A stretch of 37,758 nt of DNA from Fibrobacteria bacterium. GTDB lineage: Bacteria > Fibrobacterota > Fibrobacteria > UBA11236. Position numbers and translations under genes: made by a program. Below the pieces are notes generated by a model. It did not search any database. It worked only from the letters and a program-made list of their open reading frames with translations, and was not told the DNA's origin. The stretch spans positions 1 through 37,758 of the forward strand of contig JADGQO010000090.1 in the NCBI GenBank assembly GCA_017881725.1. Direction: 5' to 3'. Every line of letters begins with the position of its first letter. Position 1 is the stretch's first letter. Of the stretch, positions 2,171-36,954 are shown one piece after another.

Positions 2171-4156
2171 TCAGGCGTTGAGGCCGAATTTTCGGTGGAT
2201 TTCGTCCATCGAGAGCCGGACCACGATGGGTGACCCGGACGGGGAAACATAAGGATTTTGGGTTGCAAAGAGACCATCGATCAAGGCGGAAACTTGGGCG
2301 TATTCCATCGGTTCGCCCAACTTAACCGAGGTTACCCGCGCATAGACGCGCGCCAGCCGCATTTGAAACTCTTCATGCTTGGCGCCGCCGGCACGTTCCG
2401 GTCGAAGCAGGCCCTGCACCATCTCGAAGACCAAACGTTTAGCTTGATCGGGTCGGACCTCCATGGGAAGGCCGCGCAATTGGAACGCGTTGCCGCCGAA
2501 AGACTCCAAGTCGAATCCCAAAGCCTGGATTTGATCCAGATGCTGCTCCAAGAACAGACTGTCCCCCGGCGACATTTCCAATACCTCGGGAAACAACAAT
2601 TGTTGGGATGAAAATCGACCGGGCCGCCGCATGTCTTCCAAAGCCTTTTCATAGAGGATGCGCTCATGCGCCGCTTGCTGGTTCACCATCATCAGCCCGC
2701 TCTCGACGCCGAAAAGAATGAACCCGTGATGCAATTGCAAGTACGGAATTTCCGGCGCCCGGGGCCGGGCCTGCGATTCCGCGCGCATGGGGCCTAATTG
2801 CGTCTGGGGCGTCTGGGCCGCATAGGAATTCGGGATGGCGGACCCCGTTGTCGCGACGGGCCGCGTCGTAACGTCGTACGCATTCTGGGTCGAAATCGGA
2901 AAAAGGCGGATTTGGTTGGAGATCCGTTCTCCGGACTCGACTGGGCGCATCGGCGACGGAGATCCCATTTCCCCGGCATCGGTTTGAAATCCATTGCCAG
3001 GCTCCCGTAACGTCTCGGTTACCGCCCCGGAAAATAAAAAGGGCGCGGCCAGGGAGACGGACTCGCCGCCGGTAGATGCGCCTGCGTTCGCCACCCGTCC
3101 GTCCGGATTTTCCGAGGTAACTTGTGGGTTACCTAAGGGGGACAAATCCAGTTCCGGCGCGGAGATGACGCGGCGCAATCCGTCTTTTACGGCCTGGTTG
3201 ATGCTCCAATAAATGCGGCTTTCGTTGAGGAAGCGCACTTCCTTCTTGGTGGGATGAACGTTCACGTCCACCTCTTCGGTGGGCATGGTCAGGTAAATTG
3301 CCGCCATCGGGAAACGGCCGGGCGGCAAGGCATCGTAGCTTTGGGACAAGGCGCGCGCCAGCAAGCCGCTGTGGATGTTGCGCCGGTTGATGTAAAAGTA
3401 TTGGTGCGTGGAGCGGAGGCGCGCCTGCTGCGGCGTGCACACGTAACCTTCCACGTGGACGGTGCCGTCGGTCCAATCCAGGGGCGCCAATTCGTTGGTG
3501 ATGTTGAACCCCAGGATTTCGCCCACGCGGTTCTTGAGGCTGCCCTCCGCGAGCGAAAGGATATCCTTCCCGCGATCGCTGATGCGGAAGGCCACGCCGG
3601 GATGAGCCAAGGCCACGCGGCTAACCATGGCCAGGATGCGGGCCAATTCGGTTTTGGGGCTGCCCATGAATTTACGCCGCGCGGGATTATGCAGGAACAG
3701 GTTTTTAACCGTGATCGTCGTCCCGGGATTGCGCGAAATTTCCCGCGTTCCCGTATGCGCCGAATCGCTCACCGCCACGGCCACGCCAGTCGCCTCGGAA
3801 GCGTGCCGCGTTTCAATCGTCACCTCCGCCACGGCCGCCATGCTACACAGCGCTTCTCCCCGGAATCCATAGGAGGCTACATGTTCCAAATCTTCCACCG
3901 CGTTGATTTTACTGGTGGTATGCGGAAGCCAAGCGATTAAGGCGTCTGCGCGGATCATGCCGCTGCCATTGTCGCCGACCTTAATCAAATCCAACCCGCC
4001 CTCTTCCAAAGCGATAGAAATCTTGGTCGCGCCCGCGTCCAAGGCGTTCTCGACCAATTCTTTGACCGCATTGGCGGGCCGTTCGATGACTTCGCCGGCG
4101 GCGATTTTATGAATGGTGGCCGGAGAGAGTCGGTTGATAATGGAAGGCGATGACAT
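2171..4156 (-). CDS. mutL: DNA mismatch repair protein MutL, endonuclease motifs missing
   Basis: A GHKL ATPase that links MutS mismatch recognition to strand incision. The N-terminal ATPase is intact: E36 in ELVENALDAGAT (the general base), DNGSGM at 62-67, TTSK, YGFRGEAL near 96-103. A Pro/Gly/Ser-rich linker spans about 335-465, and the dimerisation domain about 470-661. The C-terminal nuclease signatures of MutH-less MutLs are not preserved: the DQHAxxExxxxE site reads NQQAAHERILYE (492-503) and the CPHGRP site reads SPSGSP (638-643). Length of 661 is normal. It is divergent from the Rrf2 gene. Two copies of the dispersed GTAAC-N6-GTTAC palindrome lie in the linker-coding part. Identity certain; the loss of nuclease function is inferred from sequence. 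Confidence 0.96.
   Translation of the reverse strand: MSSPSIINRLSPATIHKIAAGEVIERPANAVKELVENALDAGATKISIALEEGGLDLIKVGDNGSGMIRADALIAWLPHTTSKINAVEDLEHVASYGFRGEALCSMAAVAEVTIETRHASEATGVAVAVSDSAHTGTREISRNPGTTITVKNLFLHNPARRKFMGSPKTELARILAMVSRVALAHPGVAFRISDRGKDILSLAEGSLKNRVGEILGFNITNELAPLDWTDGTVHVEGYVCTPQQARLRSTHQYFYINRRNIHSGLLARALSQSYDALPPGRFPMAAIYLTMPTEEVDVNVHPTKKEVRFLNESRIYWSINQAVKDGLRRVISAPELDLSPLGNPQVTSENPDGRVANAGASTGGESVSLAAPFLFSGAVTETLREPGNGFQTDAGEMGSPSPMRPVESGERISNQIRLFPISTQNAYDVTTRPVATTGSAIPNSYAAQTPQTQLGPMRAESQARPRAPEIPYLQLHHGFILFGVESGLMMVNQQAAHERILYEKALEDMRRPGRFSSQQLLFPEVLEMSPGDSLFLEQHLDQIQALGFDLESFGGNAFQLRGLPMEVRPDQAKRLVFEMVQGLLRPERAGGAKHEEFQMRLARVYARVTSVKLGEPMEYAQVSALIDGLFATQNPYVSPSGSPIVVRLSMDEIHRKFGLNA
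3006..3023. repeat. dispersed palindrome GTAAC-N6-GTTAC, copy 1
   Basis: CGTAAC-GTCTCG-GTTACC in the mutL linker region. The two 5-nt half sites are exact inverted repeats. This is the only exact copy whose half sites are out of register with the G-N-x-x-V-T codon frame seen at the others. Confidence 0.7.
3115..3134. repeat. dispersed palindrome GTAAC-N6-GTTAC, copy 2
   Basis: AGGTAAC-TTGTGG-GTTACCT, a 7-bp inverted repeat with 6-nt spacer, 110 bp from copy 1 and also in the mutL linker. Read in the mutL frame it encodes G-N-P-Q-V-T (342-347). Confidence 0.75.
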
Positions 4157-4219
4157 ACCACGTCAAAGTGCAAAATCCTTGCGACTCTGGTCAATTTGCT
4201 TGGAAAATCTTATACCATA

Positions 4220-4248
4220 TTGTCCCTATCAGTTTTATATGTTATTAT
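4220..4248 (+). promoter_or_regulatory. predicted promoter of the sulfur operon
   Basis: TTGTCC, 17-bp spacer, TATTAT. The -10 element ends 6 nt before the ATG at 4255 and no Shine-Dalgarno is present, so the transcript would start at or next to the start codon. The surrounding 4157-4254 gap is AT-rich and also holds the divergent mutL promoter. An alternative upstream start (TTGCTT-N16-TATTGT) cannot be excluded. Confidence 0.5.
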
Positions 4249-4254
4249 TCGACC

Positions 4255-4695
4255 ATGAAGGTGACCTCCAAAACCATGTACACCTTGCATTTCCTATGCG
4301 CCCTGGCCATCAAGAGCAAAGAGTGGCCCTTGAAGCCCATTCATTTGCGGGAAATCGCCAAGGAGTACAATATCCCGTTCAAATTCCTGGAGCAAATCGC
4401 CATTTTGATGAAGAGTGTCGGGCTGGTACGCGGGGCGCGGGGAAAGTTGGGCGGGTACCAATTGGCTGAACCGGCGGAGACCATCACCTTGTCGCGCATC
4501 ATCCGAGCGACCGAGGGTGAAATTTTACCGTGCTCGGATATCGAAGGGGGTAACGAGGTGGTTACCTCACTACTGCACCGCCTGTTTCAAGAGGGACGTG
4601 AATTGGTGGACAAGAAATTGGAGTCGGTCACGCTGGCGCAAATCGCAGAAAAGGCGAAACAGCAGCTAGAACCCGTGCCGATGTACTACCTCTGA
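4255..4695 (+). CDS. Rrf2 family transcriptional regulator of sulfur genes
   Basis: A 146-residue winged-helix regulator: MKVTSKTMYTLHFLCALA, then the recognition region LREIAKEYNIPFKFLEQI and the wing GLVRGARGKLGGYQLA, all typical of the Rrf2/CymR/IscR family. Only one cysteine (C93) lies where IscR has three Fe-S ligands, so a CymR-like sensor of cysteine-pathway enzymes fits better than an Fe-S sensor. In Bacillus, CymR works through CysK, and cysK is two genes downstream here. The ATG at 4255 gives the normal family length; an in-frame start 105 bp upstream would add a non-conserved extension and lacks an RBS. The stop overlaps the cysH start (TGATG). The loop after C93 carries a copy of the dispersed palindrome. 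Confidence 0.88.
   Translation: MKVTSKTMYTLHFLCALAIKSKEWPLKPIHLREIAKEYNIPFKFLEQIAILMKSVGLVRGARGKLGGYQLAEPAETITLSRIIRATEGEILPCSDIEGGNEVVTSLLHRLFQEGRELVDKKLESVTLAQIAEKAKQQLEPVPMYYL
4549..4566. repeat. dispersed palindrome GTAAC-N6-GTTAC, copy 3
   Basis: GGTAAC-GAGGTG-GTTACC, perfect 6-bp half sites, within the Rrf2 gene and encoding G-N-E-V-V-T (99-104) in the loop where related IscR proteins bind their cluster. Confidence 0.75.
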
Positions 4696-5408
4696 TGAAC
4701 CCTGACTTTATCGCTCAGGCCAAGCTGCTGGACGCGGAATTCGCTGCGCTGTCCGCCGACGCGCGCATCCAAAAAGCCTTTGAAATTTTCGGAACCGGAT
4801 TAATCGCCACGACTTCCTTCGGTCGGGACGCGGGATTGCTGCTGCACCATATCCATCGCTTGAAATTGCCCGTACGCGCCTATTTCATCGATACCGGCTT
4901 CCACTTTCCGGAAACGCTGGCCTATCGGGATACCTTGACTTCCACCTACCAAATCGATCTACGCGAATCGGCCTCCACGGACCCGTATCGCCGACGTTAC
5001 GCCGTTGAAAAGGGTGGCGCACTGACCATCACCGACACCCAGGCTTGCTGCGGAGTGAATAAGGTCGCCGTGCAGGCGGCTTTCCTGGGACGATCGGACG
5101 TGACCGCGTTTTTGGCCGGCTTGCGCCGCGACCAAAGCGAATCGCGCCAGGATACGCCTTTCGTCCACGTGCAGAAAGGCAAAATCAAGATTTGCCCTTT
5201 CGCCGACTGGCCCGCCGAAGACGTGGACCTTTATCTCAAGCTCTGGGAGGTGCCGGAACATCCTCTGGCCAAGTTGGGCTATACCAGCATCGGATGCAGC
5301 CCATTGACGTGCACGACTCCGCCGGTGGACGGCGCGGATCGCCGTTCGGGCCGTTGGGCAGGAGATTCCAAAACCGAATGCGGCTTGCACTTGGATTACG
5401 AGCCATGA
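4695..5408 (+). CDS. cysH: phosphoadenylyl/adenylyl-sulfate reductase CysH
   Basis: Reduces activated sulfate (APS or PAPS) to sulfite with thioredoxin. The 237-residue protein shows the nucleotide-binding loop TTSFGRDAG (39-47), the FIDTGFHFPET segment and the catalytic ECGLH cysteine (C229). It has a Cys-Cys pair at 118-119 (QACCGVN) that marks the 4Fe-4S, APS-type enzymes. The second ligand pair is unusual: GCSPLTC, i.e. C201 and C206 separated by four residues, whereas characterised APS reductases have CxxC. The start overlaps the Rrf2 stop, and the stop overlaps the cysK start (ATGA), so translation is coupled. No ATP sulfurylase or sulfite reductase genes are in the window. Confidence 0.93.
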   Translation: MNPDFIAQAKLLDAEFAALSADARIQKAFEIFGTGLIATTSFGRDAGLLLHHIHRLKLPVRAYFIDTGFHFPETLAYRDTLTSTYQIDLRESASTDPYRRRYAVEKGGALTITDTQACCGVNKVAVQAAFLGRSDVTAFLAGLRRDQSESRQDTPFVHVQKGKIKICPFADWPAEDVDLYLKLWEVPEHPLAKLGYTSIGCSPLTCTTPPVDGADRRSGRWAGDSKTECGLHLDYEP

Positions 5409-6331: not shown

Positions 6332-6343
6332 GCGGCGGACCCG

Positions 6344-12812: not shown

Positions 12813-13811
12813 GTGGAATCCCCAGTGGGGACTATGTCGCGGTTGTTGGGGATAGGGAGCCAGCCATTTGAAGATTCGGTCATTCCCCGAAAGGGCTTCT
12901 GCTTGAGCCTGGAATCCAAGACCCTCCTTTTGTTGGAGTCCGATGACGGCATCCAGGAAATGGTCCAATCCATCGTGCTCGATCATGATCTGGCGATGGA
13001 ATCGGCCTATAATGCACAGGACGCGCTGCGGCTGATAGCCAAGGGAAAAACCTTCGCCTTCGCGTTTAATTTGGGTTTAGTCGGTGGCTCGCCTCTGGAG
13101 TTCATCCGCAAGTTCAAGCAAAGCAATCCCGACCTGCCGTTGATCGCCATCGTCGATAAAGCCCATGACGGCATTTTGGTGGAACTGCTCCAGGCGGGAA
13201 CCTACGCCTGCCTCACCCTGCCGCTGCAAGCCAACGACCTGGCTTACAATCTGAGCAAGATCATCGCCAATAACACCGAGACTTACAATCCTTTCGCGTT
13301 GAAATACGAGGAACGCATCCTCATCCTGCCGAACGATTTTTCCTTGGTGATGCAGGTGTCCAAGAGCCTGGTGGAAAGTACCTTGCCCATCCATGAAAAA
13401 AACCGTTTCCACATCATCCTCGGACTGTCCGAAATCATCAACAACGCCATTGAACATGGAAATCTCGGCATCACGTTCGAAGAAAAAAGCAACGCCCTGA
13501 AAGCCTCGCGCTTCTATCCGCTCGCGATTGAACGGTCGCATAAGGAACCCTTCCGTGATCGCGTGGTCACCATCCGTTCGCGCGTCTTCCCCAACCTGCG
13601 CCGCATCGAATATTTCGTCGCCGATCAAGGCCAGGGCTTCGACTGGCGTTCGCTGCCGGATCCGAAAAACAAGGAAAACATCCTCAACCGCAATGGTCGG
13701 GGAATCATGATGGCCCGCTACGCTTTCGACGAAATGATTTACAACGAAACCGGGAACGAGGTGACTTTGGTGGTAAACCTCGATCTACCCTACCGGGGCA
13801 GGAGGACCTGA
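12813..13811 (+). CDS. pseudo-receiver fused to RsbW-like anti-sigma/ATPase domain
   Basis: A 332-residue two-domain signalling protein. Residues about 35-155 have a CheY-like pattern, with acidic D44/D45, but the acceptor aspartate is an asparagine (N86, AFNLGLV) and the conserved lysine before Pro is leucine (LTLPL), so phosphorylation is unlikely. Residues about 165-330 form an HATPase_c_2 domain with N-box SEIINNAIEHGN, a DQGQGF ATP-loop and GRGIMMARY, as in RsbW/SpoIIAB-type kinases. The GTG start at 12813 has AAGGAG 6 nt upstream; an ATG eight codons later is possible. The stop overlaps the dnaX start (TGATG), coupling a signalling protein to the replication clamp-loader gene. No sigma or anti-anti-sigma partner is visible. 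Confidence 0.8.
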   Translation: MESPVGTMSRLLGIGSQPFEDSVIPRKGFCLSLESKTLLLLESDDGIQEMVQSIVLDHDLAMESAYNAQDALRLIAKGKTFAFAFNLGLVGGSPLEFIRKFKQSNPDLPLIAIVDKAHDGILVELLQAGTYACLTLPLQANDLAYNLSKIIANNTETYNPFALKYEERILILPNDFSLVMQVSKSLVESTLPIHEKNRFHIILGLSEIINNAIEHGNLGITFEEKSNALKASRFYPLAIERSHKEPFRDRVVTIRSRVFPNLRRIEYFVADQGQGFDWRSLPDPKNKENILNRNGRGIMMARYAFDEMIYNETGNEVTLVVNLDLPYRGRRT

Positions 13812-15745
13812 TGGCTTATCTGGCCATGGCGCGCAAATGGCGGCCCCGTAATTTCGAAGAGATGGTCGGACAGGACCATATCGCCCAGACCATCCGCAAC
13901 GCCATCGACGGCAAGCGCATCTCGCACGCATACCTGTTCACGGGCACGCGCGGGGTGGGAAAAACCACTTCGGCGCGCATCTTGGCCAAGGCGCTGAATT
14001 GCGAGAAAGGCCCCACGCCAACGCCGTGTGATGCCTGTGACAATTGCAAGGCCGTGAATAACGGCAGCAGCATGGACGTGTTGGAAATCGACGGAGCGTC
14101 CAACAACAGCGTGGACAATATCCGCGATCTTCGCGAGCAGGTGAAATACGCCCCCATGCACGGCGGCTACAAGATTTACATCATCGACGAAGTGCACATG
14201 TTGTCGAAGGCCGCGTTCAACGCCTTGTTGAAAACGCTGGAAGAACCGCCGCCGCATGTGGTGTTTATCTTTGCCACCACCGAATCCGGGAAAGTCCCGC
14301 ATACCATCCTTTCCCGCGTGCAACGCTTCGACTTCAAGCGCATTTCCGAGCCGGACATCCGGCAACGCCTGGAATTCATTTGCGCCCAGGAGGCCATTCA
14401 GCCCGAACGCGAGGCCCTGGAGGCGATGGCCCGTAAGGCCGACGGCAGCATGCGCGACGCCTTGTCGCTGTTCGATCAGGTTTACGCGTATTCCGGCGCG
14501 GAGCTCACCTTCGAAGCCGCCCGCAAAGTGCTCGGCATCCCGCGGGAAAGCCTGTTCGATGATTTGATCAACGCGCTGATTCGGCACGATCAAAAAGCCT
14601 GCTTCGATATTTTGGAAAACGCCCATCGGGAAGGCATCGAAACCTCGGAGTTCCTGGTCGCCTTCGGCGAATACCTGCGCAACCTGCTCTTTTCCCGTCA
14701 GGGAGTCAGCGCAGCGGCCTTGGGACTCAGCGAGGCGCGCCATGGCGAACTCTGCGACGCCGCTCCGGAATTACGGGATGGCGACATCCTGCGGTTCGCC
14801 AAATTGGTTTCCGATCTCCTGGCGCAAATCAAGACGGCCTCCAATCCACGACTAGCCGTGGAATTGGGCTTCGCGCGTATGGCGAGTTTGGATCGCGTGG
14901 TGACGCTTTCCCAGGTCCTGGGCCAGGAATTTCAACCCGCACCCAGCGGCGCGCAAGGGACGATGGGCCTAAAGCCCGATTCGCAAGCGCCGTCTCCGGC
15001 GCCGGTGCCGGAGACGGTGATGCGGAAGCCCGCGCCGGAAACCACTTCTGCCTTGCGCGACGACGTTGCGCTCCCCGGTTCGCCCGGGGAGTCAAAAAAA
15101 AAAAATCCCTCTGAGCCCCTGACTCCGCGCTTGGAGCCGCCCCGCGATAACTCCTGGGAACACCTTACCGAGATACGCGTCGACTCGGCCCTCATGGCCG
15201 CAGAAACCGCAAGCCAGGAGGCGACGCTCACGGACGAGGATGCAGACTCCTCCGGGATGGCGGATGACTCGGATCCCGATCCCGAGGACCCAGAGATGAT
15301 GGCGGCCCTGGAAATCCCCGTGCCCCGCCCTACGGAACCGCCGGATCCGCAGCGGGTTCCCGTCCAGGCCGGTCCGGCGCAATTGTCCGGCGTATGGCCA
15401 ATGCTGGTCCGCGAGTTCATTACGGCGCGTCCGCTGCTCGGCTCCAATTTGGCTCCAACCCGGCTGGAATATTCGGACGGGGAAACACCGGAGTTACGGG
15501 TCATGTTTCTGGAACGCTCGGCTTTCCAGCTGATTGGCGACGACGCGGATTTCAAAAAGACCATCCAAACTTTTCTGTATTCCAAGGTAGCGGCGGGTGA
15601 CTTCCAGGTGCGTTTCGCCCTGGATCCATCGGCGCCGGAAACGCCCGCCGGTCCCGTGGCGTCCCTGATGCCCGACGACCCGGTGCGCAGCGAGCCCATC
15701 GTCGGTTTTACGGTGCATTTATTCGACGGCAGATTGATCCATTAA
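13811..15745 (+). CDS. dnaX: DNA polymerase III subunits gamma/tau
   Basis: The clamp-loader ATPase, 644 residues as tau. Motifs in order: Walker A GTRGVGKT (45-52), zinc module C64-C73-C76-C79, Walker B with DEVHML (126-131), the sensor region TTESGKVPHTILSRVQRF, then domain III to about 370. A Pro/Glu/Asp-rich linker and the tau-specific C-terminal domain follow. The linker codons include twelve consecutive A, where slippage would give a short gamma form (see separate entry). The Walker A and all four zinc cysteines are intact. It is followed by ybaB as in many genomes, but the usual recR does not come next. Confidence 0.96.
   Translation: MAYLAMARKWRPRNFEEMVGQDHIAQTIRNAIDGKRISHAYLFTGTRGVGKTTSARILAKALNCEKGPTPTPCDACDNCKAVNNGSSMDVLEIDGASNNSVDNIRDLREQVKYAPMHGGYKIYIIDEVHMLSKAAFNALLKTLEEPPPHVVFIFATTESGKVPHTILSRVQRFDFKRISEPDIRQRLEFICAQEAIQPEREALEAMARKADGSMRDALSLFDQVYAYSGAELTFEAARKVLGIPRESLFDDLINALIRHDQKACFDILENAHREGIETSEFLVAFGEYLRNLLFSRQGVSAAALGLSEARHGELCDAAPELRDGDILRFAKLVSDLLAQIKTASNPRLAVELGFARMASLDRVVTLSQVLGQEFQPAPSGAQGTMGLKPDSQAPSPAPVPETVMRKPAPETTSALRDDVALPGSPGESKKKNPSEPLTPRLEPPRDNSWEHLTEIRVDSALMAAETASQEATLTDEDADSSGMADDSDPDPEDPEMMAALEIPVPRPTEPPDPQRVPVQAGPAQLSGVWPMLVREFITARPLLGSNLAPTRLEYSDGETPELRVMFLERSAFQLIGDDADFKKTIQTFLYSKVAAGDFQVRFALDPSAPETPAGPVASLMPDDPVRSEPIVGFTVHLFDGRLIH
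15092..15122 (+). other. probable slippage/frameshift site producing DnaX gamma
   Basis: Twelve A (15094-15105) follow codon S428. In the tau frame they encode three Lys and the start of Asn. Gaining one A (or a -1 ribosomal shift) reads K-K-K-K-S-L and stops at TGA 15112-15114, giving a 434-residue protein. Losing one A stops at TGA 15120-15122. E. coli gamma is 431 residues, and Thermus makes gamma through slippage on nine A. A GGGGAG stretch at 15086-15091 lies just upstream. Product not demonstrated. Confidence 0.7.
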
Positions 15746-15796: not shown

Positions 15797-16102
15797 ATGA
15801 ACATGCAGAAAATGATGAAAGAATTGCAAAAGATGCAGGGCAAGATGGCCAAGGTCCAAAGCGAAATGGAAGGCGCCATTTTTGAGGCCGAAGCCGGAGG
15901 CGGCATGGTGAAACTGGCGATGAACGGCAAGTACGAGGTACAGTCCGTGAAACTCGCCAAGGATGCGGTGGACCCGAACGATGTCGAAGCGCTCGAAGAT
16001 CTCCTCCTGGCCGCCTTCAACTCCTGCAAGGCGAAAGTGGATGAAGCCTCGCAGGAAAAAATGGGGGGACTGACCAAGGGAATGGGTATCCCGGGCATGT
16101 AA
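15797..16102 (+). CDS. ybaB: nucleoid-associated protein, YbaB/EbfC family
   Basis: A 101-residue DNA-binding protein that forms dimers with a helical N-terminus (MNMQKMMKELQKMQGKMAKVQ) and the family core with AGGGMVKLAMNGKYEVQSVKL, then a C-terminal helix and a Gly/Met-rich tail (LTKGMGIPGM). AAAGGA lies 8 nt upstream of the ATG. It follows dnaX by 51 bp, the usual neighbourhood; recR, which commonly follows, is absent here. Confidence 0.93.
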   Translation: MNMQKMMKELQKMQGKMAKVQSEMEGAIFEAEAGGGMVKLAMNGKYEVQSVKLAKDAVDPNDVEALEDLLLAAFNSCKAKVDEASQEKMGGLTKGMGIPGM

Positions 16103-19791: not shown

Positions 19792-20627
19792 GGGTGGCCT
19801 TGGTCGTCAACACGCGCCCGGCGGACCAAAGTCAGGAACTGACGGATTTGCTGCAGCGGGCCGGTTTTGAAACCACGGAAATTCCCCTGGTGGAAATCAT
19901 GCCCGACGAAGAGGGCTTGGCGCGGTTGCGGCGACTCCCAACCACTGGCTTCACGGGAGTATTCCTTTCCAGTCCCAACGGCTTGCGCCACATGGAAGCC
20001 GGGCTGCTTCCCATCGAGCTGGAAGCATGGATGGAGAAACCGTTTTATTTGGTCGGAGGAAAATCCGCCTCCCTCGTCGAAAACCTGGGCGGCCGCGTCG
20101 CGTTTTACCCGCAAAAGGCGTCCTTGGAGGGCTTCCTGGAGGAATATTCCCCCACCGAGGCCATGCATGCCCTCGGCGCACGTAACCTGTCCGTTACCGG
20201 CCTCGTCCTGGCGCAACGTTGGATGCATCCTTGTTCGGCTTCCACGCGCTTGGAGCCGACCGCGTTCAAAGCCAAAGGCATCGGGGTCGAAAACGTAGTC
20301 GTCTACAGGCCGGGAATGCCCCCGCAAGCCGCCGCAGCGCTGGGCGCTCAAGCGACGTCCGTGGACGCGGTTGTATTCTGTTCGGGATCGGCCGTCACGA
20401 ATTTTTTTCAGGCCGCCCCGGAATTGGGCGCTCGTCTGGGCCGAAAGGATGGGATCCTGGCCGTTTCCATTGGTCCGTCCACGTCTAAGATTTTGATTGA
20501 AAAAGGCGTCGAGAATTACCGCGAAGCCGTGCATGCGGACAATTCCAGCCTCGTCGACGCGCTTAAGCAGGCCTTCGGAGGGCAAGCCACCAAGGTATTC
20601 ACCAAGCAACCGGAGAAAAAACCATGA
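19788..20627 (+). CDS. hemD: uroporphyrinogen-III synthase
   Basis: Closes hydroxymethylbilane with D-ring inversion. The 279-residue protein has the weakly conserved two-lobed HemD pattern: VVNTRPADQSQELTDLL, IPLVEIMP, the SSPNGLRHM and VGGKSA segments, a second lobe with VVVYRPG, and VVFCSGSAVTNFF plus SIGPSTSKIL near the end. It uses a TTG start overlapping the hemC stop (TTGA) or a GTG two codons later; I prefer the TTG. HemD is fast-evolving, so gene order strengthens the call. It overlaps hemL by an ATGA. One copy of the dispersed palindrome lies inside. Confidence 0.9.
   Translation: MRVALVVNTRPADQSQELTDLLQRAGFETTEIPLVEIMPDEEGLARLRRLPTTGFTGVFLSSPNGLRHMEAGLLPIELEAWMEKPFYLVGGKSASLVENLGGRVAFYPQKASLEGFLEEYSPTEAMHALGARNLSVTGLVLAQRWMHPCSASTRLEPTAFKAKGIGVENVVVYRPGMPPQAAAALGAQATSVDAVVFCSGSAVTNFFQAAPELGARLGRKDGILAVSIGPSTSKILIEKGVENYREAVHADNSSLVDALKQAFGGQATKVFTKQPEKKP
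20181..20198. repeat. dispersed palindrome GTAAC-N6-GTTAC, copy 4
   Basis: CGTAAC-CTGTCC-GTTACC in hemD, encoding R-N-L-S-V-T (132-137), a linker-like stretch between the two HemD lobes. Confidence 0.7.
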
Positions 20628-23937: not shown

Positions 23938-26900
23938 CTAAGGCACGGCGCTTGGAGCCGCCGTTTCCGAACTAATTGGGGGCGTTACCGACGTCGTTGG
24001 AGAGATTGTCACCGGCGTGGAAGTTACCGGAGTGATGATAACGCAGCATATTACAAAGCATTTTGCGCCACAATAGTCCGCTCTATATTTGGCATCGCCG
24101 GCAGTTAAGGTGACTGCCGCCGGATTTCCGGATGCTGTCGGAGGGCCGCCGACCCAGCTCTTAAACGAACTAGTATCCGTACTTGAAGCTGTATTTGAAG
24201 TACTGATGTTATATGAAACGCCATAATTCACAGTAACGGTCACAGAATCGGGTGGCACCAAACACCCCTTCCCTGGAATACACAAGATTAAGCAACTTTG
24301 CCCAGTCGGGCAAACACTGACTCCATGACCTACCACGGTCAGATGAAAAGTTTTAATCCCAAACGTCGCCTTTATCACATGGTCCTCAGAAATCCCGGTC
24401 AACGCATAGTTCGACACCGCCATTGGAGGTCCGGTCAGGCTTGCCGTCACATTGGTTCCATTGTCCGTCAGGGTATTCAGGTTGTTTCCCGTGCCCGAAG
24501 TGGTGAATGTAAACGTGTAATTCGAGTTCGAGTCTACGGTGGCAGGCGGTGGGGTTACCGAGCCGGTACCGGTATCCGTGGCCGTGAGTGAATAGGTGCG
24601 CAGAAATGTCGCGGCCAGTGAGTGGGTTTCCTTCACGGTGAAGATGTACTTGCCGCCCGAAATCGAGGCCAATTTGTCCGTCCCATTGTCGGTGAAACTC
24701 AGCAGCCGATAACCCGCCAACGGCGCGACCGTGGCGGTATCCTGATCGCCGTAGGCTACGGAATCCTTGGCAGTGAGCACTCCGCGGCCGTCAGTGGAGG
24801 TTTTAACCGAATAGGTGTTGATGGCGAAAATAGCCGCAGCCCGGACGAACGGCGATTTCACCAAAAGCACGGTGGTATCCGCCAGGCTGTCGGAAATGGT
24901 GGCTTTACCATCCAGCAAGGTCCAGTTGGTGAAATGCGAGCCTACCACAGACGGAGCGGAAATCGGCACGGATTGCCCGATGGCATAGTCGGCGGAGTCG
25001 AGACGGACCAAGGCGCCTGCGGGCGTGCGGCGCGCCAGAATAAGACGGGCCTTGCGCACCACGGCCACGGCGTAGGTGGACTTGCTCTTTCCGTCTTGGG
25101 CTGTGACCACGACATTGATCAAGTTGTCGCCGACAATCAGGCTTTCCGGGGGTGAGAAGGAACCGGAAGCCGTCGCGGAATCCCCTACGGTAACCTTGGC
25201 GTTACCTTGCTTTACCGTAGGCTTAAGCCGGATGGACGTGACGGGGTTTTCCACCGTGTCCGCGTAGGTGAATACCTTCGGCGCGAAACTCGGCTTGAGG
25301 GTAATGCCTTCGGTTTCCAATTTGCTCAAGCTCGCATCCGAGCTGGGGGCCCGGGTCACGGAAGCGGAGTAGACTTTCTGCGTCCCATCTTGCGCAGTGA
25401 CCACGATCTGAAAAACGTTGACCGTGGTGCCGACCGGCACCGATACCGGGTCGGAGGCAACGTCGGCTTTAACCGGCTTACCATTGATGGCAAGGCTGGC
25501 GGCCGTGTCCGAGGGCGTGGCAACGACGGATACAAGGCTGTCTGAGTAACCGACGCTGAGGGAGTAGAAGAGCGTTACGGGCTTGAAGACCGGCGTGAGC
25601 GTCCCGGCCGATGCGGCGAGTCCCGAAAGGTCGGCGTTGGCTTTGGAGGGAGCGCGGACGTTGACGACCATGGTGTCCAATGCGGAATTATCATAACCGT
25701 TGGTGACGCGGACTACGATGACAAGCGTTCCCGAATCGGAAGGCGCGCGCAAGGTGGTGTCTTGCTTGGAAAGAGCGGTGAAGGAACCGGAGCCCAGCTT
25801 TATTTCGCGCTTGGCGATAGCGCTATGCGCGTCCGTGCCTTTCGCGTGAACGTGGATGAGCGAGCCGGCAATGACGGTGGTATCGTTGCCGGCATCGGCG
25901 ATGGGCAAGTCGAGGATGACGTTTACCTTCACCGTATCGATGCTGGGCTTATCATTATCATCGACGACTTTTAAAATCGCGTTGAATTTTCCCACCTTGG
26001 CATATTTGAATTTACCCTTGATGGCGGCGATGGAGTCGTTGACCAGAACAGTGTCCGAGAACGTTCCTTCCCCGAGGTAATCCCATGCGTAGCCGGCCAC
26101 CTTTCCATCCGGATCGACCGCCTTGGCCGAAAACTCCAGGGAATCGCCCGCCACAATGGTCGTATCCGGCGTTATGGATAAGATATCCGGCGGTTGATTT
26201 CCGATGCCCGCGTCTATTTCCGCTATCGCTTCATTGCCTTCGGAGTCGCGTACATAGAAATACAAGTGATGCACCCCGACCGTATTGAATTTAGCCGTAA
26301 TTGAAGGCAACGCGACCTTGGTCCCGTTCCAAGGCCCAGGGAGCGAGTCGTCCCACGTGCTGTCGCCGTTCAAGTCCCATTTGAACATGACGATGGACCC
26401 GAATTGCTGGGTCACGCTCGGCGTGTAAACAATGGGTTTGTTGACCGCCGCGCCCGGCCGGCCCGCGATGGTCAAGACGGGAACGTCCAGAATGACGTTC
26501 ACCTTGGCCGCGCTGGACACATCGAAGGCTTTGGAGAGGGCGCGAATGTGGGTCGTGCCGGAAGCGATGCCCTTCACGCGACCGCTTGAATCGACGGTCG
26601 CAATCTTGGGATCGTCCGAACTCCAAGACACTTTTTGACTCGCCGAATCGGGAAGCACCGAAGCCGTCAGCGAATCCATCGAGCCACCGACGAATATGTC
26701 CATGGAATCGGGAACCAGCTTCACGTGGCCATTGGTCGTGGTGGATGCGATCATGACGATCAAGGAATCCACCAAGTTCGTGTCCTGTTTGGCGCGCACG
26801 CGAATCTTGACCGTGCCGGTTTTCAGAGCCTTGAGCGTTGCCTGCCCGGCGAAAGAGCCTCCCGGGAACTCGACATTCGCTGCGTCGGCGCCTTCCACGG

Positions 26901-27378
26901 ACCAGAGGAAAAGTTGCGAGGCATAGGCCGGTTTCAACGTCGCCGTCAGGAGCGCCGGACTCGATCCGGGCGTCAGCGCGAGCATATCCGGTTTGAGGGA
27001 AATTGAAACGGGCTTGACTCCGGGTTGGAAAGCCGTGTCCACGGTTACCGTAACCTTGCCGTTACTGTCGTTGAAAGAGCGGGATTGTTCAAAGCAAGGC
27101 CCGCCGGCTTTGGTACCCCGGATATATACGGTGGCATCGCCGCCTTTGTATTTGTCGGCGGCCAGGCGCTTCAGTTGATCCAGGCTCTTTAGCGAGTCGT
27201 TGTACAAAGTGTCCAGGATTTTTCCGGATCCATCCTTGAGCAGGATAAGCACGCTGTCGCACTTCGTCCACGTGGAATCGCCTTGGATGTCGAAGGAGTC
27301 CTGCGAATCAACGGTATGGCAAGCCCAGAAAAGCGAAAGCAAAAGGAAGGCACTGACGCCGAGTATTTTCATTTTCAT
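23938..27378 (-). CDS. giant PKD/Ig-like lipoprotein (module gene B1)
   Basis: A 1146-residue surface or periplasmic lipoprotein. The signal peptide ends in a lipobox-like LFWAC (Cys near 20). After a conserved N-terminal domain (about 30-130) come a Ig-like domain, a BIG_2-type domain (PDSMDIFVGGSMDSL... near 215-300), PKD-like domains with WDLNGDSTWDD and ADAGNDTTVIAG, two cadherin-like beta-sandwich repeats (SLSKLETEGITL, VTAQDGKSK), several ATF-type 'bacterial repeat' units and a Cys-rich, Thr/Ser/Pro-rich end. Its N-terminal and PKD parts resemble the shorter gene B2. The 27378 ATG has GGGGA 6 nt upstream. It follows gene A1 by 67 bp. The last 600 bp are more AT-rich than the rest. A role in adhesion is the family expectation, not proven. 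Confidence 0.85.
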   Translation of the reverse strand: MKMKILGVSAFLLLSLFWACHTVDSQDSFDIQGDSTWTKCDSVLILLKDGSGKILDTLYNDSLKSLDQLKRLAADKYKGGDATVYIRGTKAGGPCFEQSRSFNDSNGKVTVTVDTAFQPGVKPVSISLKPDMLALTPGSSPALLTATLKPAYASQLFLWSVEGADAANVEFPGGSFAGQATLKALKTGTVKIRVRAKQDTNLVDSLIVMIASTTTNGHVKLVPDSMDIFVGGSMDSLTASVLPDSASQKVSWSSDDPKIATVDSSGRVKGIASGTTHIRALSKAFDVSSAAKVNVILDVPVLTIAGRPGAAVNKPIVYTPSVTQQFGSIVMFKWDLNGDSTWDDSLPGPWNGTKVALPSITAKFNTVGVHHLYFYVRDSEGNEAIAEIDAGIGNQPPDILSITPDTTIVAGDSLEFSAKAVDPDGKVAGYAWDYLGEGTFSDTVLVNDSIAAIKGKFKYAKVGKFNAILKVVDDNDKPSIDTVKVNVILDLPIADAGNDTTVIAGSLIHVHAKGTDAHSAIAKREIKLGSGSFTALSKQDTTLRAPSDSGTLVIVVRVTNGYDNSALDTMVVNVRAPSKANADLSGLAASAGTLTPVFKPVTLFYSLSVGYSDSLVSVVATPSDTAASLAINGKPVKADVASDPVSVPVGTTVNVFQIVVTAQDGTQKVYSASVTRAPSSDASLSKLETEGITLKPSFAPKVFTYADTVENPVTSIRLKPTVKQGNAKVTVGDSATASGSFSPPESLIVGDNLINVVVTAQDGKSKSTYAVAVVRKARLILARRTPAGALVRLDSADYAIGQSVPISAPSVVGSHFTNWTLLDGKATISDSLADTTVLLVKSPFVRAAAIFAINTYSVKTSTDGRGVLTAKDSVAYGDQDTATVAPLAGYRLLSFTDNGTDKLASISGGKYIFTVKETHSLAATFLRTYSLTATDTGTGSVTPPPATVDSNSNYTFTFTTSGTGNNLNTLTDNGTNVTASLTGPPMAVSNYALTGISEDHVIKATFGIKTFHLTVVGHGVSVCPTGQSCLILCIPGKGCLVPPDSVTVTVNYGVSYNISTSNTASSTDTSSFKSWVGGPPTASGNPAAVTLTAGDAKYRADYCGAKCFVICCVIITPVTSTPVTISPTTSVTPPISSETAAPSAVP
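25189..25206. repeat. dispersed palindrome GTAAC-N6-GTTAC, copy 5
   Basis: GGTAAC-CTTGGC-GTTACC, perfect 6-bp half sites, inside the B1 gene; on the coding strand it encodes G-N-A-K-V-T. Confidence 0.75.
27049..27066. repeat. dispersed palindrome GTAAC-N6-GTTAC, copy 6
   Basis: CGTAAC-CTTGCC-GTTACT inside the B1 gene, encoding S-N-G-K-V-T on the coding strand. An adjacent GTTACC half site at 27044-27049 makes a tandem of three half sites. Confidence 0.7.
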
Positions 27379-27445
27379 CGGAATTCCCCTGTGCCGCCAC
27401 GGCGGCGCATGCAACTAGAAATCAAGTTCATCCTAAATCCCATTT

Positions 27446-28493: not shown

Positions 28494-29582
28494 TCAGGGC
28501 CGATTGGATAAGACTGCTAGGCTATCCGTTGCCGAAGCGGTAATGGTAACGCGCAAGGTATCGAAGGTCGAAAGTGAGTCTGAATCCGTGATCCGCAGGA
28601 TACATTGGAGTTCTCCCGGAGTATTCGGTGCCTGCATGGTGGATTCCTGTTGCTTCGCAAAGACGAATGGTTCTTCGCCGCATTGCCACGCGCGGCTTAC
28701 CACCGGTCCGAGCCCGTCTTCGCCCTTTGCATGCAGCCGAATCAGCGTGCCCGCAGTTACCGTAGTGTCCGCACCGGCATCCGCAGTCGGCGGGTCGAAA
28801 AATACCTGCGCGAGAAAACTCGCCGTGGTTTTCCTCCCAACCCTGTCCCAAACTTTTATTTGGCAGGAGTAATCGCCCGGATCCGAAAATGCATGCCGAT
28901 ACCGAATCGTCTCTCTCGCGCCCGAAAGGAAACCTGAATCCACGGTCGCGCCGTTGCACGTCCAACTAAAACCGGCCAAGTCGCCGTCGATGTCGGACGT
29001 TTCCGCGTCCATCACGATGGTATCTCGAATGGACACCGAGGTATCCGAAGGGTGCGCGATCAAAATCGGTGGACTGGGAAGCGGAATATTCGCCGAGTCC
29101 GGCGCCGGAGTGGGCACGGATTTGGATGTGATCGTCGGATCGACCTTGGGGGTAAACGGATTCTGCGCGTCATAATGCGCGACATTCATGGCGATCACCT
29201 TTTGCGATCGCCCGTCGTAAACGCGCACTTCGCGGTAGACCATGATGCCCGCTTGAAAGCCCATGATGACGATGTTCGTGGTATCTCCGGCATACCTGTT
29301 GAGAGCCAAATGATAAAGCCGCGAGGGGGATGTAAGGGTATCGTTGAATACCGTATCTTGCCGGTTACCTAGGGTGTCTCCCACGGTAATTACCAGGCGC
29401 GCATAGTTCGACAATCCCGGGCTCGGTTCCAACCGCAGTATCACCGCGTCCTTGGGCCCCGCCGGGTCGCAGGATGCGATTAAAAAGGTTAAGGACGCTT
29501 TGATGAATGGCGCCCAGAATGCACGGTTCAGGATTAGCGACAGGCTTGTTCGTGTTTCGATCGGGGCCCGATCGGCCGCCAT
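28494..29582 (-). CDS. PKD-domain lipoprotein (module gene B2)
   Basis: A 362-residue lipoprotein with lipobox LIASC (Cys near 38), an N-terminal domain similar to B1 (QDTVFNDTLTSPSRL...YAGDTTN..., cf. LDTLYNDSLKSLDQL in B1), a Pro-rich stretch, then two PKD-like domains (DAETSDIDGDLAGFSW and ADAGADTTVTAGTLIRLHAKGEDG, matching B1 closely). It lacks the cadherin-like and repeat domains that make B1 large. The ATG at 29582 has GCGAGG 4-5 nt upstream and starts 31 bp after the A2 stop; an in-frame start 60 bp further up would overlap A2 and give an unlikely signal peptide. Paralogy with B1 is by hand alignment. Confidence 0.8.
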   Translation of the reverse strand: MAADRAPIETRTSLSLILNRAFWAPFIKASLTFLIASCDPAGPKDAVILRLEPSPGLSNYARLVITVGDTLGNRQDTVFNDTLTSPSRLYHLALNRYAGDTTNIVIMGFQAGIMVYREVRVYDGRSQKVIAMNVAHYDAQNPFTPKVDPTITSKSVPTPAPDSANIPLPSPPILIAHPSDTSVSIRDTIVMDAETSDIDGDLAGFSWTCNGATVDSGFLSGARETIRYRHAFSDPGDYSCQIKVWDRVGRKTTASFLAQVFFDPPTADAGADTTVTAGTLIRLHAKGEDGLGPVVSRAWQCGEEPFVFAKQQESTMQAPNTPGELQCILRITDSDSLSTFDTLRVTITASATDSLAVLSNRP

Positions 29583-29613
29583 GCGGCCTCGCGTGGGATT
29601 TTTCAACGCCCCG

Positions 29614-30429
29614 TTACCGCGCGACTGTGGACGGAACCACATAGGTTTTCTGGCCCTGGTTTGGATGGCTGGTGGAATAATAAACCGAGATGGCCGCCAG
29701 GGCTAAGGCCGCGCCGCCGCCAATCCAAGTCCCGGAGTTTTTCCACATCGGGAGGTTTTCGGTTTCCTCCCCGACGGACGCGAGACCCGCGCTTGCCGGG
29801 GCGGGAACTTCCGGAATTAAACTCGCCCGGTTGGCTGCGGTATCCTTCGCAAGCGGTCCGGAATTCGGCGTCGGCCTGACCGCAGTCTTGATGGGGGGAG
29901 GTCGCGGGGCCGAGTCATTGCGTTGCTGCCGAGTGGGTGCGGGCGGAGGGGAATGGGTAACGGCAAATTCCAATTTTACTTTTTCGAAAATATTATCAAC
30001 CTCTTCCCCGACGAATAGGTCAATGAGATTCGCATTAGGCGCCAAACCCAGGAGTTTGAACATGTGGTAGCGGCCCAATTCGCGAGTTCCCGGGTTGGCG
30101 GCATAGACCACGGCCAAGTGTTTTTCCATGAAAATACTGTCCGACAGGCTCAGGCGGACGCGCGACTTTTGCACCAAAGCGAAATCGGACAGCACCTTGT
30201 CGAAATCGCCATTGTGATAATGGGCATGGATACGAGCTTGATTCAGCGCCCGCGGCGGCTGCGGAGAATCCGATGAAAAAGACTGAGGGCGCGAAGCCGG
30301 GGGCACAACTTGAAGAGTCGCGGGATGCGCAGGCGACGAATCGGCCGGAATACGCACGGGAGCAGCGGCCAACATGAGAGCCATCGCCCACGCGCCCGAC
30401 GATCCGATATGTAATTCCTGAATCTTCAT
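29614..30429 (-). CDS. exported helical-domain protein with C-terminal membrane anchor (module gene A2)
   Basis: A 271-residue paralogue of A1: signal peptide (hydrophobic WAMALMLAAAPV), Pro/Ser-rich spacer, helical domain at about 62-156 with DSIFMEKHLAVVYAANPG and LIDLFVGEEVDNIFEKV, Pro-rich linker, and a C-terminal membrane helix (about 234-251, WIGGGAALALAAISVYY) with a short tail. GGAAGAG lies 3 nt before the ATG. The upstream 182-bp gap (30430-30611) contains an inverted repeat CGCGAA/TTCGCG (30530-30547) and a one-mismatch copy of the dispersed palindrome. It is the first gene of the A2-B2-A1-B1 run. Function unknown. Confidence 0.8.
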   Translation of the reverse strand: MKIQELHIGSSGAWAMALMLAAAPVRIPADSSPAHPATLQVVPPASRPQSFSSDSPQPPRALNQARIHAHYHNGDFDKVLSDFALVQKSRVRLSLSDSIFMEKHLAVVYAANPGTRELGRYHMFKLLGLAPNANLIDLFVGEEVDNIFEKVKLEFAVTHSPPPAPTRQQRNDSAPRPPPIKTAVRPTPNSGPLAKDTAANRASLIPEVPAPASAGLASVGEETENLPMWKNSGTWIGGGAALALAAISVYYSTSHPNQGQKTYVVPSTVAR

Positions 30430-30548: not shown

Positions 30549-30566
30549 GGTAATCTGGAAGTTACC
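30549..30566. repeat. one-mismatch copy of the dispersed palindrome (intergenic)
   Basis: GGTAAT-CTGGAA-GTTACC. This is the only copy I find outside a gene, 46 bp beyond the stop of the dehydrogenase gene and about 120 bp upstream of the A2 start. Confidence 0.5.
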
Positions 30567-33365: not shown

Positions 33366-33451
33366 TCCCCAGTTCCGCATGCGGTCCTAAACCTCAAACC
33401 GCTTCCACCCGCCCAAAACCCCAGTCTCCAAGGGGTATTCAGCCCTTCGCA

Positions 33452-33480
33452 TTGACCCCCCGGCCGGTCAGCCCTATAAT
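33452..33480 (+). promoter_or_regulatory. strong sigma-70-type promoter of the fapA/HD-GYP operon
   Basis: TTGACC, 17-bp spacer, TATAAT: the best promoter match I find in the window. The spacer contains the inverted GACC...GGTC that might bind a regulator. The predicted 5' leader of about 85 nt begins with a perfect hairpin GCCCG-ACAA-CGGGC (33489-33502). Confidence 0.75.
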
Positions 33481-33570
33481 GATTTGAAGCCCGACAACGG
33501 GCCGATACATTGATCGCGTGACACGGATGTAAACGGGAATTTCCGGTTGTTCCGGGTTGGAAGGATATTT

Positions 33571-36164: not shown

Positions 36165-36198
36165 CGGAAAACTCGCTTATCTTTTGGCTTAGGCCTGC

Positions 36199-36221
36199 CG
36201 TTGACGCCATCAACGTTTTTT
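36199..36221 (+). terminator. intrinsic terminator after the fapA/HD-GYP operon
   Basis: CGTTGA-CGCCA-TCAACG (6-bp stem, 5-nt loop) followed directly by six T, 35 nt after the HD-GYP stop. It is the clearest intrinsic terminator in the window. Confidence 0.8.
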
Positions 36222-36243
36222 AAGGCTTAACAAAGGGTAATGC

Positions 36244-36954
36244 ATGCGAGTGCTTTTTCGATTCCCGGCCGGAATAATGGCCTTTTCCGCTTTGGCGATT
36301 TTATTCGGTTGTCTCTCCAAGGAAAAAGGCAAACCCTTGAATTCCGGCGGCATGGTTCCGCCCTGGGACTCGGCGCATTTCCAACCCAAACGCCTGGAGG
36401 CCTTTAGATATGCCGGGCCGGACAGCCTTTTCGCGGTTTTCAAATCCATCGCCGAGATAGACAGCCAAACCGGTGATCAACGTTCGTGGGCCGCTTCCGA
36501 AAATCCGGTCGATACCTTGGGCATCGCGGCCGTATTCGACACAGGTTTCATTTTCCCGTCCACGCCGGAAGCTTCGCTACCTTATGCGTATGACGATTCC
36601 TTCCGGGACGACACCTTGTTCCGCAACGCGTTTGGAAATGGATTGTTCATGCAAGACCATCCCTGCGCGGCCATGTACGTACTCTCCGGTCAATTTCTCC
36701 ATCCCGCGCGGTGGCTGCGAGCGGGCATGAAAATGAACGAGGTGATAAAGGAGTTGGGTACGCCCCTGTACCGGCAAAACGGTGTGGTACGTTATCTATC
36801 CCGGCATGCCGGGAGTGGACTTGTGGAAAAAGGGGATACCGGTAACGTCTCAGTTACCCAGGGTTCGCCGCCCGTATTCGAGGGAATTAATTTCTATTTC
36901 CGATCGGACAGCCTTTTCGCGGCCGTGCTGCAGAAATCCCAGCCTTGCCATTAA
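36244..36954 (+). CDS. lipoprotein of unknown function
   Basis: A 236-residue lipoprotein; the signal peptide ends in lipobox ILFGC (Cys near 23). The mature part is polar and contains VDTLGIAAVFDTGFIFPST and a short helix with AGMKMNEVIKELGTPLYRQNG, which looks like the SmpA/BamE-type 'small lipoprotein' segment, though this is only a resemblance. AAAGGG lies 6 nt before the ATG. It is convergent with perR (9 bp apart). A copy of the dispersed palindrome lies inside (200-205, G-N-V-S-V-T). Confidence 0.75.
   Translation: MRVLFRFPAGIMAFSALAILFGCLSKEKGKPLNSGGMVPPWDSAHFQPKRLEAFRYAGPDSLFAVFKSIAEIDSQTGDQRSWAASENPVDTLGIAAVFDTGFIFPSTPEASLPYAYDDSFRDDTLFRNAFGNGLFMQDHPCAAMYVLSGQFLHPARWLRAGMKMNEVIKELGTPLYRQNGVVRYLSRHAGSGLVEKGDTGNVSVTQGSPPVFEGINFYFRSDSLFAAVLQKSQPCH
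36841..36858. repeat. dispersed palindrome GTAAC-N6-GTTAC, copy 7
   Basis: GGTAAC-GTCTCA-GTTACC with perfect 6-bp half sites, inside the lipoprotein gene. Confidence 0.75.

What the first reader, a model, noticed from the sequence alone, without database searches (positions are those of the whole stretch)
3006..36858. Dispersed 16-18 bp palindrome GTAAC-N6-GTTAC, seven exact copies in 37.8 kb
By reading the whole window I find GTAAC, a 6-nt spacer and GTTAC at 3007, 3117, 4550, 20182, 25190, 27050 and 36842, often extended to GGTAAC-N6-GTTACC. The spacer sequences differ, but its length is always six. A rough estimate from about 58% GC gives about 0.02 expected copies. Further sites with one changed base are at 6632 (moeB), 23400 (fdhD), 29352 (B2), 30549 (intergenic) and 34243 (fapA). 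The half-site/N6/half-site architecture resembles that of CRP/FNR family operators (TGTGA-N6-TCACA) but the half sites differ, and the copies lie mainly inside genes. I know no described element with this sequence. Candidates are a nucleoid-organising or chromosome-segregation protein site, or a CRP-like regulator with many intragenic sites.
Basis: partly seen in the sequence, partly recalled or inferred. Interest (0 to 1): 0.82.

Follow-up and report, generated by a model that had tools for sequence, protein, structure and literature searches.

The report
Genus-specific dispersed gapped DNA palindrome
One genus of uncultured Fibrobacterota carries hundreds of scattered near-identical copies per genome of a short mirrored DNA sequence that looks like the binding site of an unidentified paired protein, placed preferentially where facing genes end and rarely where genes start.

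Summary
The window has 7 exact GTAAC-N6-GTTAC sites. Its genome has 513 (reversed control 4), while the 20 other spacers from N0 to N20 together give about 30. With one mismatch allowed there are 1,569 (control 135). All six genomes of the genus have it (60-513 exact), one sister-genus species weakly (23); the other 160 Fibrobacterota genomes searched have 0-6.

The bases behave like the recognition pattern of a dimeric DNA-binding protein: tolerance is position-specific and not mutation-like, and mirror positions do not covary, so it is not an RNA hairpin. In orthologous genes 6 of 30 sites recur in place, against 0.19 expected from synonymous recoding, or 0.32 after calibration on control palindromes. 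Exact sites are 30-fold denser between convergent than divergent genes.

Best reading: sites of an unidentified homodimeric protein acting chromosome-wide, most likely nucleoid-organising. A shared adenine methyltransferase, a ParB paralogue and GlnR-type direct repeats were tested and are unlikely. A DNA-uptake or self-recognition signal remains open. The binder was not found.

The parts
3007..3022 (.). exact site, inside mutL (ORF 2171-4156, -)
   Evidence: gene name recalled from the ORF sequence
3117..3132 (.). exact site, inside mutL
4550..4565 (.). exact site, inside an Rrf2-type regulator gene (ORF 4150-4695, +)
   Evidence: name recalled from the ORF sequence
4985..5000 (.). one-mismatch site GTATC...GTTAC, inside a cysH-like gene (ORF 4695-5408, +)
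   Evidence: name recalled
15482..15497 (.). one-mismatch site GAAAC...GTTAC, inside a dnaX-like gene (ORF 13811-15745, +)
   Evidence: name recalled
20182..20197 (.). exact site, inside a hemD-like gene (ORF 19788-20627, +)
   Evidence: name recalled
25190..25205 (.). exact site, inside a 1158-aa ORF (23938-27414, -)
27050..27065 (.). exact site, same ORF; a further GTTAC lies one base before it (27044-27048)
29353..29368 (.). one-mismatch site GTATC...GTTAC, inside ORF 28494-29642, -
30550..30565 (.). one-mismatch site GTAAT...GTTAC between two co-directional genes; its centre is 54 bp from the upstream stop and 128 bp from the downstream start
36842..36857 (.). exact site, near the 3' end of ORF 36244-36954, +

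Best explanation
Each copy is a binding site for a homodimeric, sequence-specific DNA-binding protein of this genus. The protein reads two inverted GTAAC half sites whose centres lie 11 bp (one helical turn) apart, with weaker preferences reaching about 13 bp to either side of the centre and in the spacer. About 1,500 sites in the window's genome (one per 3 kb, near-copies counted) are kept wherever they do not disturb coding, promoters or the 5' parts of genes. Most likely the protein is a nucleoid-associated or chromosome-organising factor that sits all over the chromosome and therefore settles where transcription ends. Shown: enrichment, inverted order, position-specific tolerance, lack of covariation, recurrence at orthologous positions above expectation, context bias and genus limit. 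Inferred: that a protein binds, that it is a dimer, and its organising role.
For: 513 exact against 4 control and about 1.5 per other spacer; 1,569 with one mismatch or fewer against 135. Not mutational decay: of 122 one-mismatch sites in 558 kb, 61 change the fourth base of the half site, 24 the second, 20 the third, 12 the first and 5 the fifth; G>A at the first and C>T at the fifth base together are 4. The motif matrix at score 10 or more finds 411 places against 55 in the reversed sequence, the matrix having been trained on the same sequence. Pairing of mirror positions outside the core equals independence (127 observed, 127.3 expected at -1). GTAAC-N6-GTTAC 98 against 6, 3 and 2 for the other orders of the same half sites. 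Orthologues: 6 of 30 own sites recur in place, 0.19 expected from synonymous recoding; reverse direction 6 of 20, 0.07 expected. 59 control half sites of the same composition gave 20 of 150 against 12.1 expected, so the calibrated expectation for the motif is 0.32, P about 1e-6. Context: exact per kb 0.817 convergent, 0.153 co-directional, 0.078 coding, 0.027 divergent (convergent against divergent P 1e-6). Within genes of 600-2400 bp 31, 47, 48, 68 from 5' to 3' quartile, P 0.003, while half sites outside motif sites are flat. Six pairs of sites lie 16-18 bp apart, where 2.0 were simulated for all gaps under 20 bp.
Against: No binder was identified. No ParB-type paralogue: exactly one such protein in each of 11 genomes, motif-free ones included. 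Spacing is random (gap CV 1.01, simulated 1.01) and no ori/ter or domain pattern could be tested in a genome of 235 contigs. The context bias could come from promoter and 5' constraint alone, whatever the sites do. All 6 recurrences are one-mismatch sites: 0 of 5 projectable exact sites recurred. As raw fractions the motif (6 of 30) and the same-composition controls (20 of 150) do not differ (P 0.39), and other-spacer pseudo-sites at a looser criterion recur in 4 of 65 (P 0.07); the excess appears only after allowing for codon usage. The pooled relatives show the convergent excess only weakly (2 exact in 12.2 kb, 0.24 expected from their coding density).
Confidence: 0.55

Rival explanations
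1. A self-DNA signal, either an uptake sequence read by a competence receptor or a recombination signal, accumulated by molecular drive; the sites mark conspecific DNA.
For: Copy number, random spread with few pairs at 20-400 bp (26 observed, 37 simulated, P 0.013), a halo of near-matches and the genus limit resemble uptake sequences (almost 1,500 copies in Neisseria; PMC2346458, first of three parts read). ComEC is present in all 11 genomes searched.
Against: ComEC is equally present in the motif-free relatives G160, G162, G163 and G154. The uptake sequences described in that paper are continuous and asymmetric. Promoter and 5' avoidance needs an extra cause.
Confidence: 0.2
2. A transcription roadblock or terminator protein site that limits read-through at gene ends, mainly between convergent genes.
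For: Convergent enrichment and 5' depletion. In L118 no site lies inside the ribosomal protein genes (12.6 kb, 3.6 expected by length), and the only site of that 20-kb stretch lies 23 bp after the last of them.
Against: 74 of 98 exact sites lie inside genes. Only 21 of 149 convergent pairs have a site within 30 bp. Scaled by isolated half sites only 2.3 sites were expected in the ribosomal genes; from lowest to highest codon-adaptation quintile all sites fall 1.5-fold, isolated half sites 2.1-fold and exact sites 3.4-fold, so there is no clear link to expression.
Confidence: 0.1
3. A conventional global transcription factor (CRP-, GlnR- or TyrR-like) with many sites.
For: 5+6+5 architecture with one-turn spacing and a graded matrix as for regulators. 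The GlnR box is similar in letters.
Against: Divergent, promoter-bearing regions are the poorest context (1 exact in 37.5 kb). Direct repeats are not enriched. CRP-type proteins read keep the usual recognition helix and have similar proteins in motif-free species. TyrR-type HTH_50 gives only sub-threshold hits in the genus and none in G161. Not all regulator families were tested.
Confidence: 0.1
4. A methylation-linked highly iterated palindrome of the HIP1 kind, or a Type I-like recognition site.
For: Elhai 2015 finds a predicted matching methyltransferase in every cyanobacterial genome with HIP sequences (PMC4390886, abstract and first of three parts of the Discussion). A gapped site suits Type I-like enzymes (recalled).
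Against: N6_Mtase (PF02384) and N6_N4_Mtase (PF01555) gave no match in G155, G157 and G158, which hold 210, 252 and 60 exact sites; PF00145 and PF02086 were not searched. The tolerance is graded, and flanks and spacer carry information.
Confidence: 0.04
5. A structural RNA or cruciform element (stem-loop).
For: Inverted repeat, dense between convergent genes.
Against: No covariation of mirror positions in 321 sites, nor in the 41 convergent and co-directional intergenic ones. Half-site letters are nearly fixed, whereas a stem would allow paired changes.
Confidence: 0.01

Closest known systems
Actinomycete GlnR box (GTnAC-n6-GTnAC; gTnAc-n6-GaAAc)
   Same: 5 + 6 + 5 bp layout and very similar letters
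   Different: Parts in direct order, bound by an OmpR-type regulator of nitrogen genes; here an inverted repeat, 1,569 near-copies in one genome, rare in divergent promoter regions
HIP1 and alternate HIPs of cyanobacteria
   Same: Palindrome iterated far beyond chance, limited to certain clades
   Different: HIPs named there are ungapped or near so, at 1,000-2,000 per Mb, and tied to methyltransferases; this one has a free 6-bp gap, about 300 per Mb counting near-copies, and no shared methyltransferase of the two families searched
HcpR2 (CRP/FNR family) operator GTAACnnnnGTTAC
   Same: Identical half sites, inverted
   Different: Spacer 4, not 6; found upstream of hcp genes
DNA uptake sequences (DUS/USS)
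   Same: Hundreds to thousands of dispersed copies, many within genes
   Different: Asymmetric and continuous; no uptake evidence here
MatP/matS, SlmA/SBS, Noc/NBS chromosome-organising sites (recalled, not looked up)
   Same: Short inverted repeats bound by dimers at many intragenic places
   Different: Tens of copies in chromosome domains; other sequences; no ParB paralogue here

Membership tests
HIP1-type highly iterated palindrome | palindrome strongly over-represented genome-wide | tested here: met
   513 against 4 control and about 1.5 per other spacer
HIP1-type highly iterated palindrome | matching methyltransferase in every genome that has it | tested here: not met
   no PF02384 and no PF01555 match in G155, G157, G158; PF00145 and PF02086 not searched, so a cytosine or D12-type enzyme is not excluded
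GlnR box | direct order of GTnAC/GaAAC with n6 | tested here: not met
   inverted form 98; GTAAC-N6-GTAAC 6, GTTAC-N6-GTTAC 3, GTAAC-N6-GAAAC 1
GlnR box | located in promoters | tested here: not met
   1 exact site in 37.5 kb of divergent intergenic DNA
HcpR2 / CRP-FNR operator | GTAAC half sites at N4 | tested here: not met
   N4: 0 exact and 5 one-mismatch in 419 kb; N6: 50 and 94
HcpR2 / CRP-FNR operator | CRP-type protein with an altered recognition helix (Pro at 181) | tested here: inconclusive
   R-E-T-V-S-R in the 4 of 6 genus proteins read; the own copies, G158's and most other paralogues were not read
DNA uptake sequence | clade-specific, hundreds to thousands of dispersed copies | tested here: met
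DNA uptake sequence | raises DNA uptake in a competent strain | not testable with these tools
   needs a culture; ComEC present in motif-bearing and motif-free genomes alike
ParB/Noc-type site | a ParB paralogue in motif-bearing genomes | tested here: not met
   one ParB_N protein per genome in all 11
EbfC/YbaB site (GTnAC, recalled) | third base free, fourth base A fixed | tested here: not met
   the fourth base is the most tolerant (61 of 122), the third less so (20 of 122)
nucleoid-associated protein site | bound in vivo genome-wide by an abundant protein | not testable with these tools
   needs ChIP-seq or affinity capture

The most novel reading that the evidence does not exclude
A genus of Fibrobacterota has a chromosome-wide, sequence-specific architectural protein unlike known nucleoid proteins. 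Its gapped-palindrome site has been built into the chromosome some 1,500 times and is kept by selection even inside coding sequences, so that the chromosome carries a built-in lattice of dimer sites that spares promoters and the starts of genes.
Probability: 0.45. Interest if true: 0.85.

Novelty: new variant of a known kind. Interest (0 to 1): 0.72.

Why it matters
In the window's genome the motif is about 340 times commoner than the same half sites at the average other spacing up to 20, and the better-known iterated motifs (HIP1, uptake sequences, chi; partly recalled) have no free gap. The genome itself reports the recognition matrix, spacing, tolerated variants and preferred context of an unknown, probably dimeric protein. 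That protein could be fished out with one oligonucleotide, which would make the open question of why some genomes accumulate dispersed palindromes directly testable outside cyanobacteria.

Tried and rejected
RNA stem-loop or terminator: no covariation. Decay of one ancestral repeat family: spacers are unrelated and the substitutions are not transition-like. Direct-repeat OmpR/GlnR type. EbfC/YbaB, whose gene appears to be in the window at 15797-16102 (recalled from sequence): tolerance pattern does not fit. CRP/FNR: spacing and the recognition helices read. ParB paralogue. TyrR-type HTH_50: sub-threshold in the genus, above the cut-off only in motif-free G163 and G154. Type I or N6/N4 methylation shared by the genus. 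An autoregulated binder next to intergenic sites: ten proteins scanned, none with a DNA-binding family, four with no family at all. A list of basic proteins gave no binder but exposed a ribosomal operon. A viral origin: the extended consensus occurs in 1 stretch of the viral collection, its reversed control in 14. A link to high expression: not separable from codon usage. Even spacing: not seen. Sparse sites in acquired islands: a Type I restriction protein and a DUF3987/Toprim protein lie on two low-density contigs, but only 10 proteins of low-density and 10 of high-density contigs were hand-picked, so no claim is made. A first raw comparison of recurrence with control palindromes showed no difference (P 0.39); calibration by codon usage restored the excess. 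In one search sites varied at the fourth base in both halves are commoner per Mb in the genus (12-26) than in the sister genus (1-5.5) and G154 (5), but the tool's reversed control exceeds them in all ten genomes of the family, so this is weak. Literature searches for the motif or for a gapped iterated palindrome; the only paper found to hold the half sites at N4 or N6 in the spellings tried was the HcpR2 paper; the GlnR box came. PMC12616744 (predicted USS receptor) was seen as abstract and outline only.

Full report
Observation. Fourteen sites exist with one mismatch or fewer, against 0.32 expected. In the window no other spacer from 0 to 20 gives a single copy.

Whole genome. The window is one contig of a 5.22-Mb genome in 235 contigs. 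That genome has 513 exact sites and 4 matches to the reversed control. Allowing every spacer from 0 to 20 raises the count only to 543, so the 20 other spacings average about 1.5 each. With one mismatch there are 1,569 sites against 135 control. Shuffling synonymous codons within 493 kb of called genes gave a mean of 0.45 exact N6 sites (maximum 2 in 20 shuffles) against 40 observed, and 11.7 one-mismatch sites (maximum 18) against 99.

Distribution. In 167 Fibrobacterota genomes (G000 included) the six of the same genus have 513, 210, 311, 252, 60 and 83 exact sites. One species of the sister genus, G161, has 23. The other 160 genomes have 0 to 6. With one mismatch the five other genus members have 655 to 1,506 and G161 has 77 (control 15), while G160, G162, G163 and G154 are below control. 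MutL relatives from a named collection come from uncultured Fibrobacteria MAGs (RYN_348, RYN_349, nzgw217, 336R_metabinner_36); three of those four fetched pieces carry exact sites.

Anatomy. In 1.08 Mb of own sequence (window plus stretches) the half site reads, from -5 to the third spacer base: C, C/T, n, not T, G/C, G, T, A, A, C, n, T/C (not A), G/C; both strands were pooled, so the mirror image is by construction. Scanning with the matrix at 10 bits or more finds 411 places against 55 in the reversed sequence; the matrix was trained on the same sequence. Tolerance is position-specific: of 122 one-mismatch sites in 558 kb, 61 change the fourth base of the half site, 24 the second, 20 the third, 12 the first (11 of them G>T) and 5 the fifth; G>A at the first plus C>T at the fifth base make up only 4 of 122. 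Mutational decay would favour just those transitions, so the variants look like accepted sites. Mirror positions outside the core pair no more often than independence predicts (at -1, 127 observed and 127.3 expected; at the other seven positions within ten counts; 321 sites), also among the 41 convergent and co-directional intergenic sites. The symmetry therefore belongs to whatever reads the DNA, not to a hairpin. Only the inverted order is enriched: 98, against 6, 3 and 2 for the other orders of the same half sites. Half-site centres are 11 bp apart, one helical turn. Six pairs of sites lie 16-18 bp apart, four of them exactly 17, which suggests side-by-side dimers.

Selection. Among 130 reciprocal-best orthologue pairs between sampled own and relative sequence (median identity 68%), 6 of 30 projectable own sites recur at the same position in the other species, against 0.19 expected if the relative's peptide were recoded with its own codon usage; from relative to own it is 6 of 20 against 0.07. 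The six are five distinct own sites, one shared with two species. All are one-mismatch variants whose ten half-site bases are unchanged while spacer bases changed in five of the six. Codon identity at conserved residues is 0.50 against 0.42 expected, so the pairs are near synonymous saturation. Against this: 0 of 5 projectable exact sites recurred, and 59 other half sites of the same composition at N6 gave 20 recurrences of 150, not different from 6 of 30 as a raw fraction (P 0.39). Other-spacer pseudo-sites at a looser criterion (two mismatches) recurred in 4 of 65 (P 0.07). The control palindromes, however, are built of commoner codons: 12.1 recurrences were expected for them by recoding (observed/expected 1.66). 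Scaling the motif's expectation by that ratio gives 0.32 against 6, P about 1e-6. I read this as selection on sites, resting on few cases.

Context. Exact sites per kb: convergent intergenic 0.817 (14 in 17.1 kb), co-directional 0.153 (9 in 58.7 kb), coding 0.078 (74 in 947 kb), divergent 0.027 (1 in 37.5 kb); 15.9 kb at stretch ends had none. Convergent against divergent gives P about 1e-6. With one-mismatch sites included the contrast is smaller: 1.168 against 0.240 per kb (P 5e-5). Inside genes of 600-2400 bp the quartiles from 5' to 3' hold 31, 47, 48 and 68 sites (P 0.003), while half sites outside motif sites, obtained by subtraction, are flat at 118, 118, 118 and 124 (P 0.97). In five genus members and the four named MAG pieces together the convergent excess is only suggestive: 2 exact in 12.2 kb where their coding density would give 0.24, and none in 22.3 kb of divergent DNA. 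Sites are otherwise spread at random (gap CV 1.01, simulated 1.01), with a mild lack of pairs 20-400 bp apart (26 against 37, P 0.013). A ribosomal protein operon in L118 has no site inside 12.6 kb of its genes and one 23 bp after the last of them, but codon usage could explain the absence (2.3 expected by half sites).

What reads it. Adenine methylation shared by the genus is unlikely, since neither N6_Mtase nor N6_N4_Mtase gave a match in G155, G157 or G158; other methyltransferase families were not searched. There is no ParB paralogue. TyrR-type HTH gives only sub-threshold hits in the genus and none in G161. CRP-type proteins exist, but those read (4 of 6 genus members, plus some others; not the own copies) keep the common R-E-x-x-x-R helix, and similar proteins sit in motif-free G160 and G163. 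ComEC is present with and without the motif. Ten proteins next to intergenic sites showed no DNA-binding family.

Comparison. The GlnR box of actinomycetes has the same 5+6+5 layout and similar letters (PMC10704036, passages), but in direct order. HcpR2 has the same inverted half sites at N4 (PMC1274295, passages). HIP1 is the closest phenomenon, but without a free gap and methyltransferase-linked (PMC4390886, abstract and part of the Discussion). Uptake sequences match in number and dispersion (PMC2346458, first of three parts). That nothing like this was found in print rests only on the searches in an open-access library.

Verdict. A real, strongly enriched, genus-specific dispersed motif with the anatomy of a dimeric protein's binding site and signs of selection. 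A nucleoid or chromosome-organising role is the most likely reading (0.55), an uptake or self-recognition signal the main rival (0.2).

Noticed in passing
window 15797-16102: A ybaB/ebfC-type gene (recalled from sequence) follows a dnaX-like gene; EbfC of Borrelia is recalled to bind GTnAC, but its tolerance pattern does not match this motif.
   Followed up: partly
L118:1-14830: An operon whose products look like EF-Tu and many ribosomal proteins (recalled from sequence); no motif site inside its genes and one 23 bp after the last ribosomal gene.
   Followed up: partly
L021, L031, L032, L034, L113 and one more in the larger sample: Six pairs of motif sites lie 16-18 bp apart, four of them exactly 17, suggesting side-by-side dimers.
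   Followed up: partly
G161 (sister genus); L059: A single sister-genus species has 23 exact sites in 2.6 Mb while three sister species have 0-2; the sampled contig with an exact site has a G+C like its other contigs, so contamination is unlikely but not excluded.
   Followed up: partly
L131: A 12-kb contig with a Type I restriction protein and an N6_Mtase match and no motif site, as expected for recently acquired DNA.
   Followed up: partly
window 23938-27414: A single 1158-aa ORF carries two of the seven exact sites.
   Followed up: no
L024 near 7839 and L029 near 8151: At these convergent sites the TAA of GTAAC appears to be the stop codon of the left gene (gene calls).
   Followed up: no
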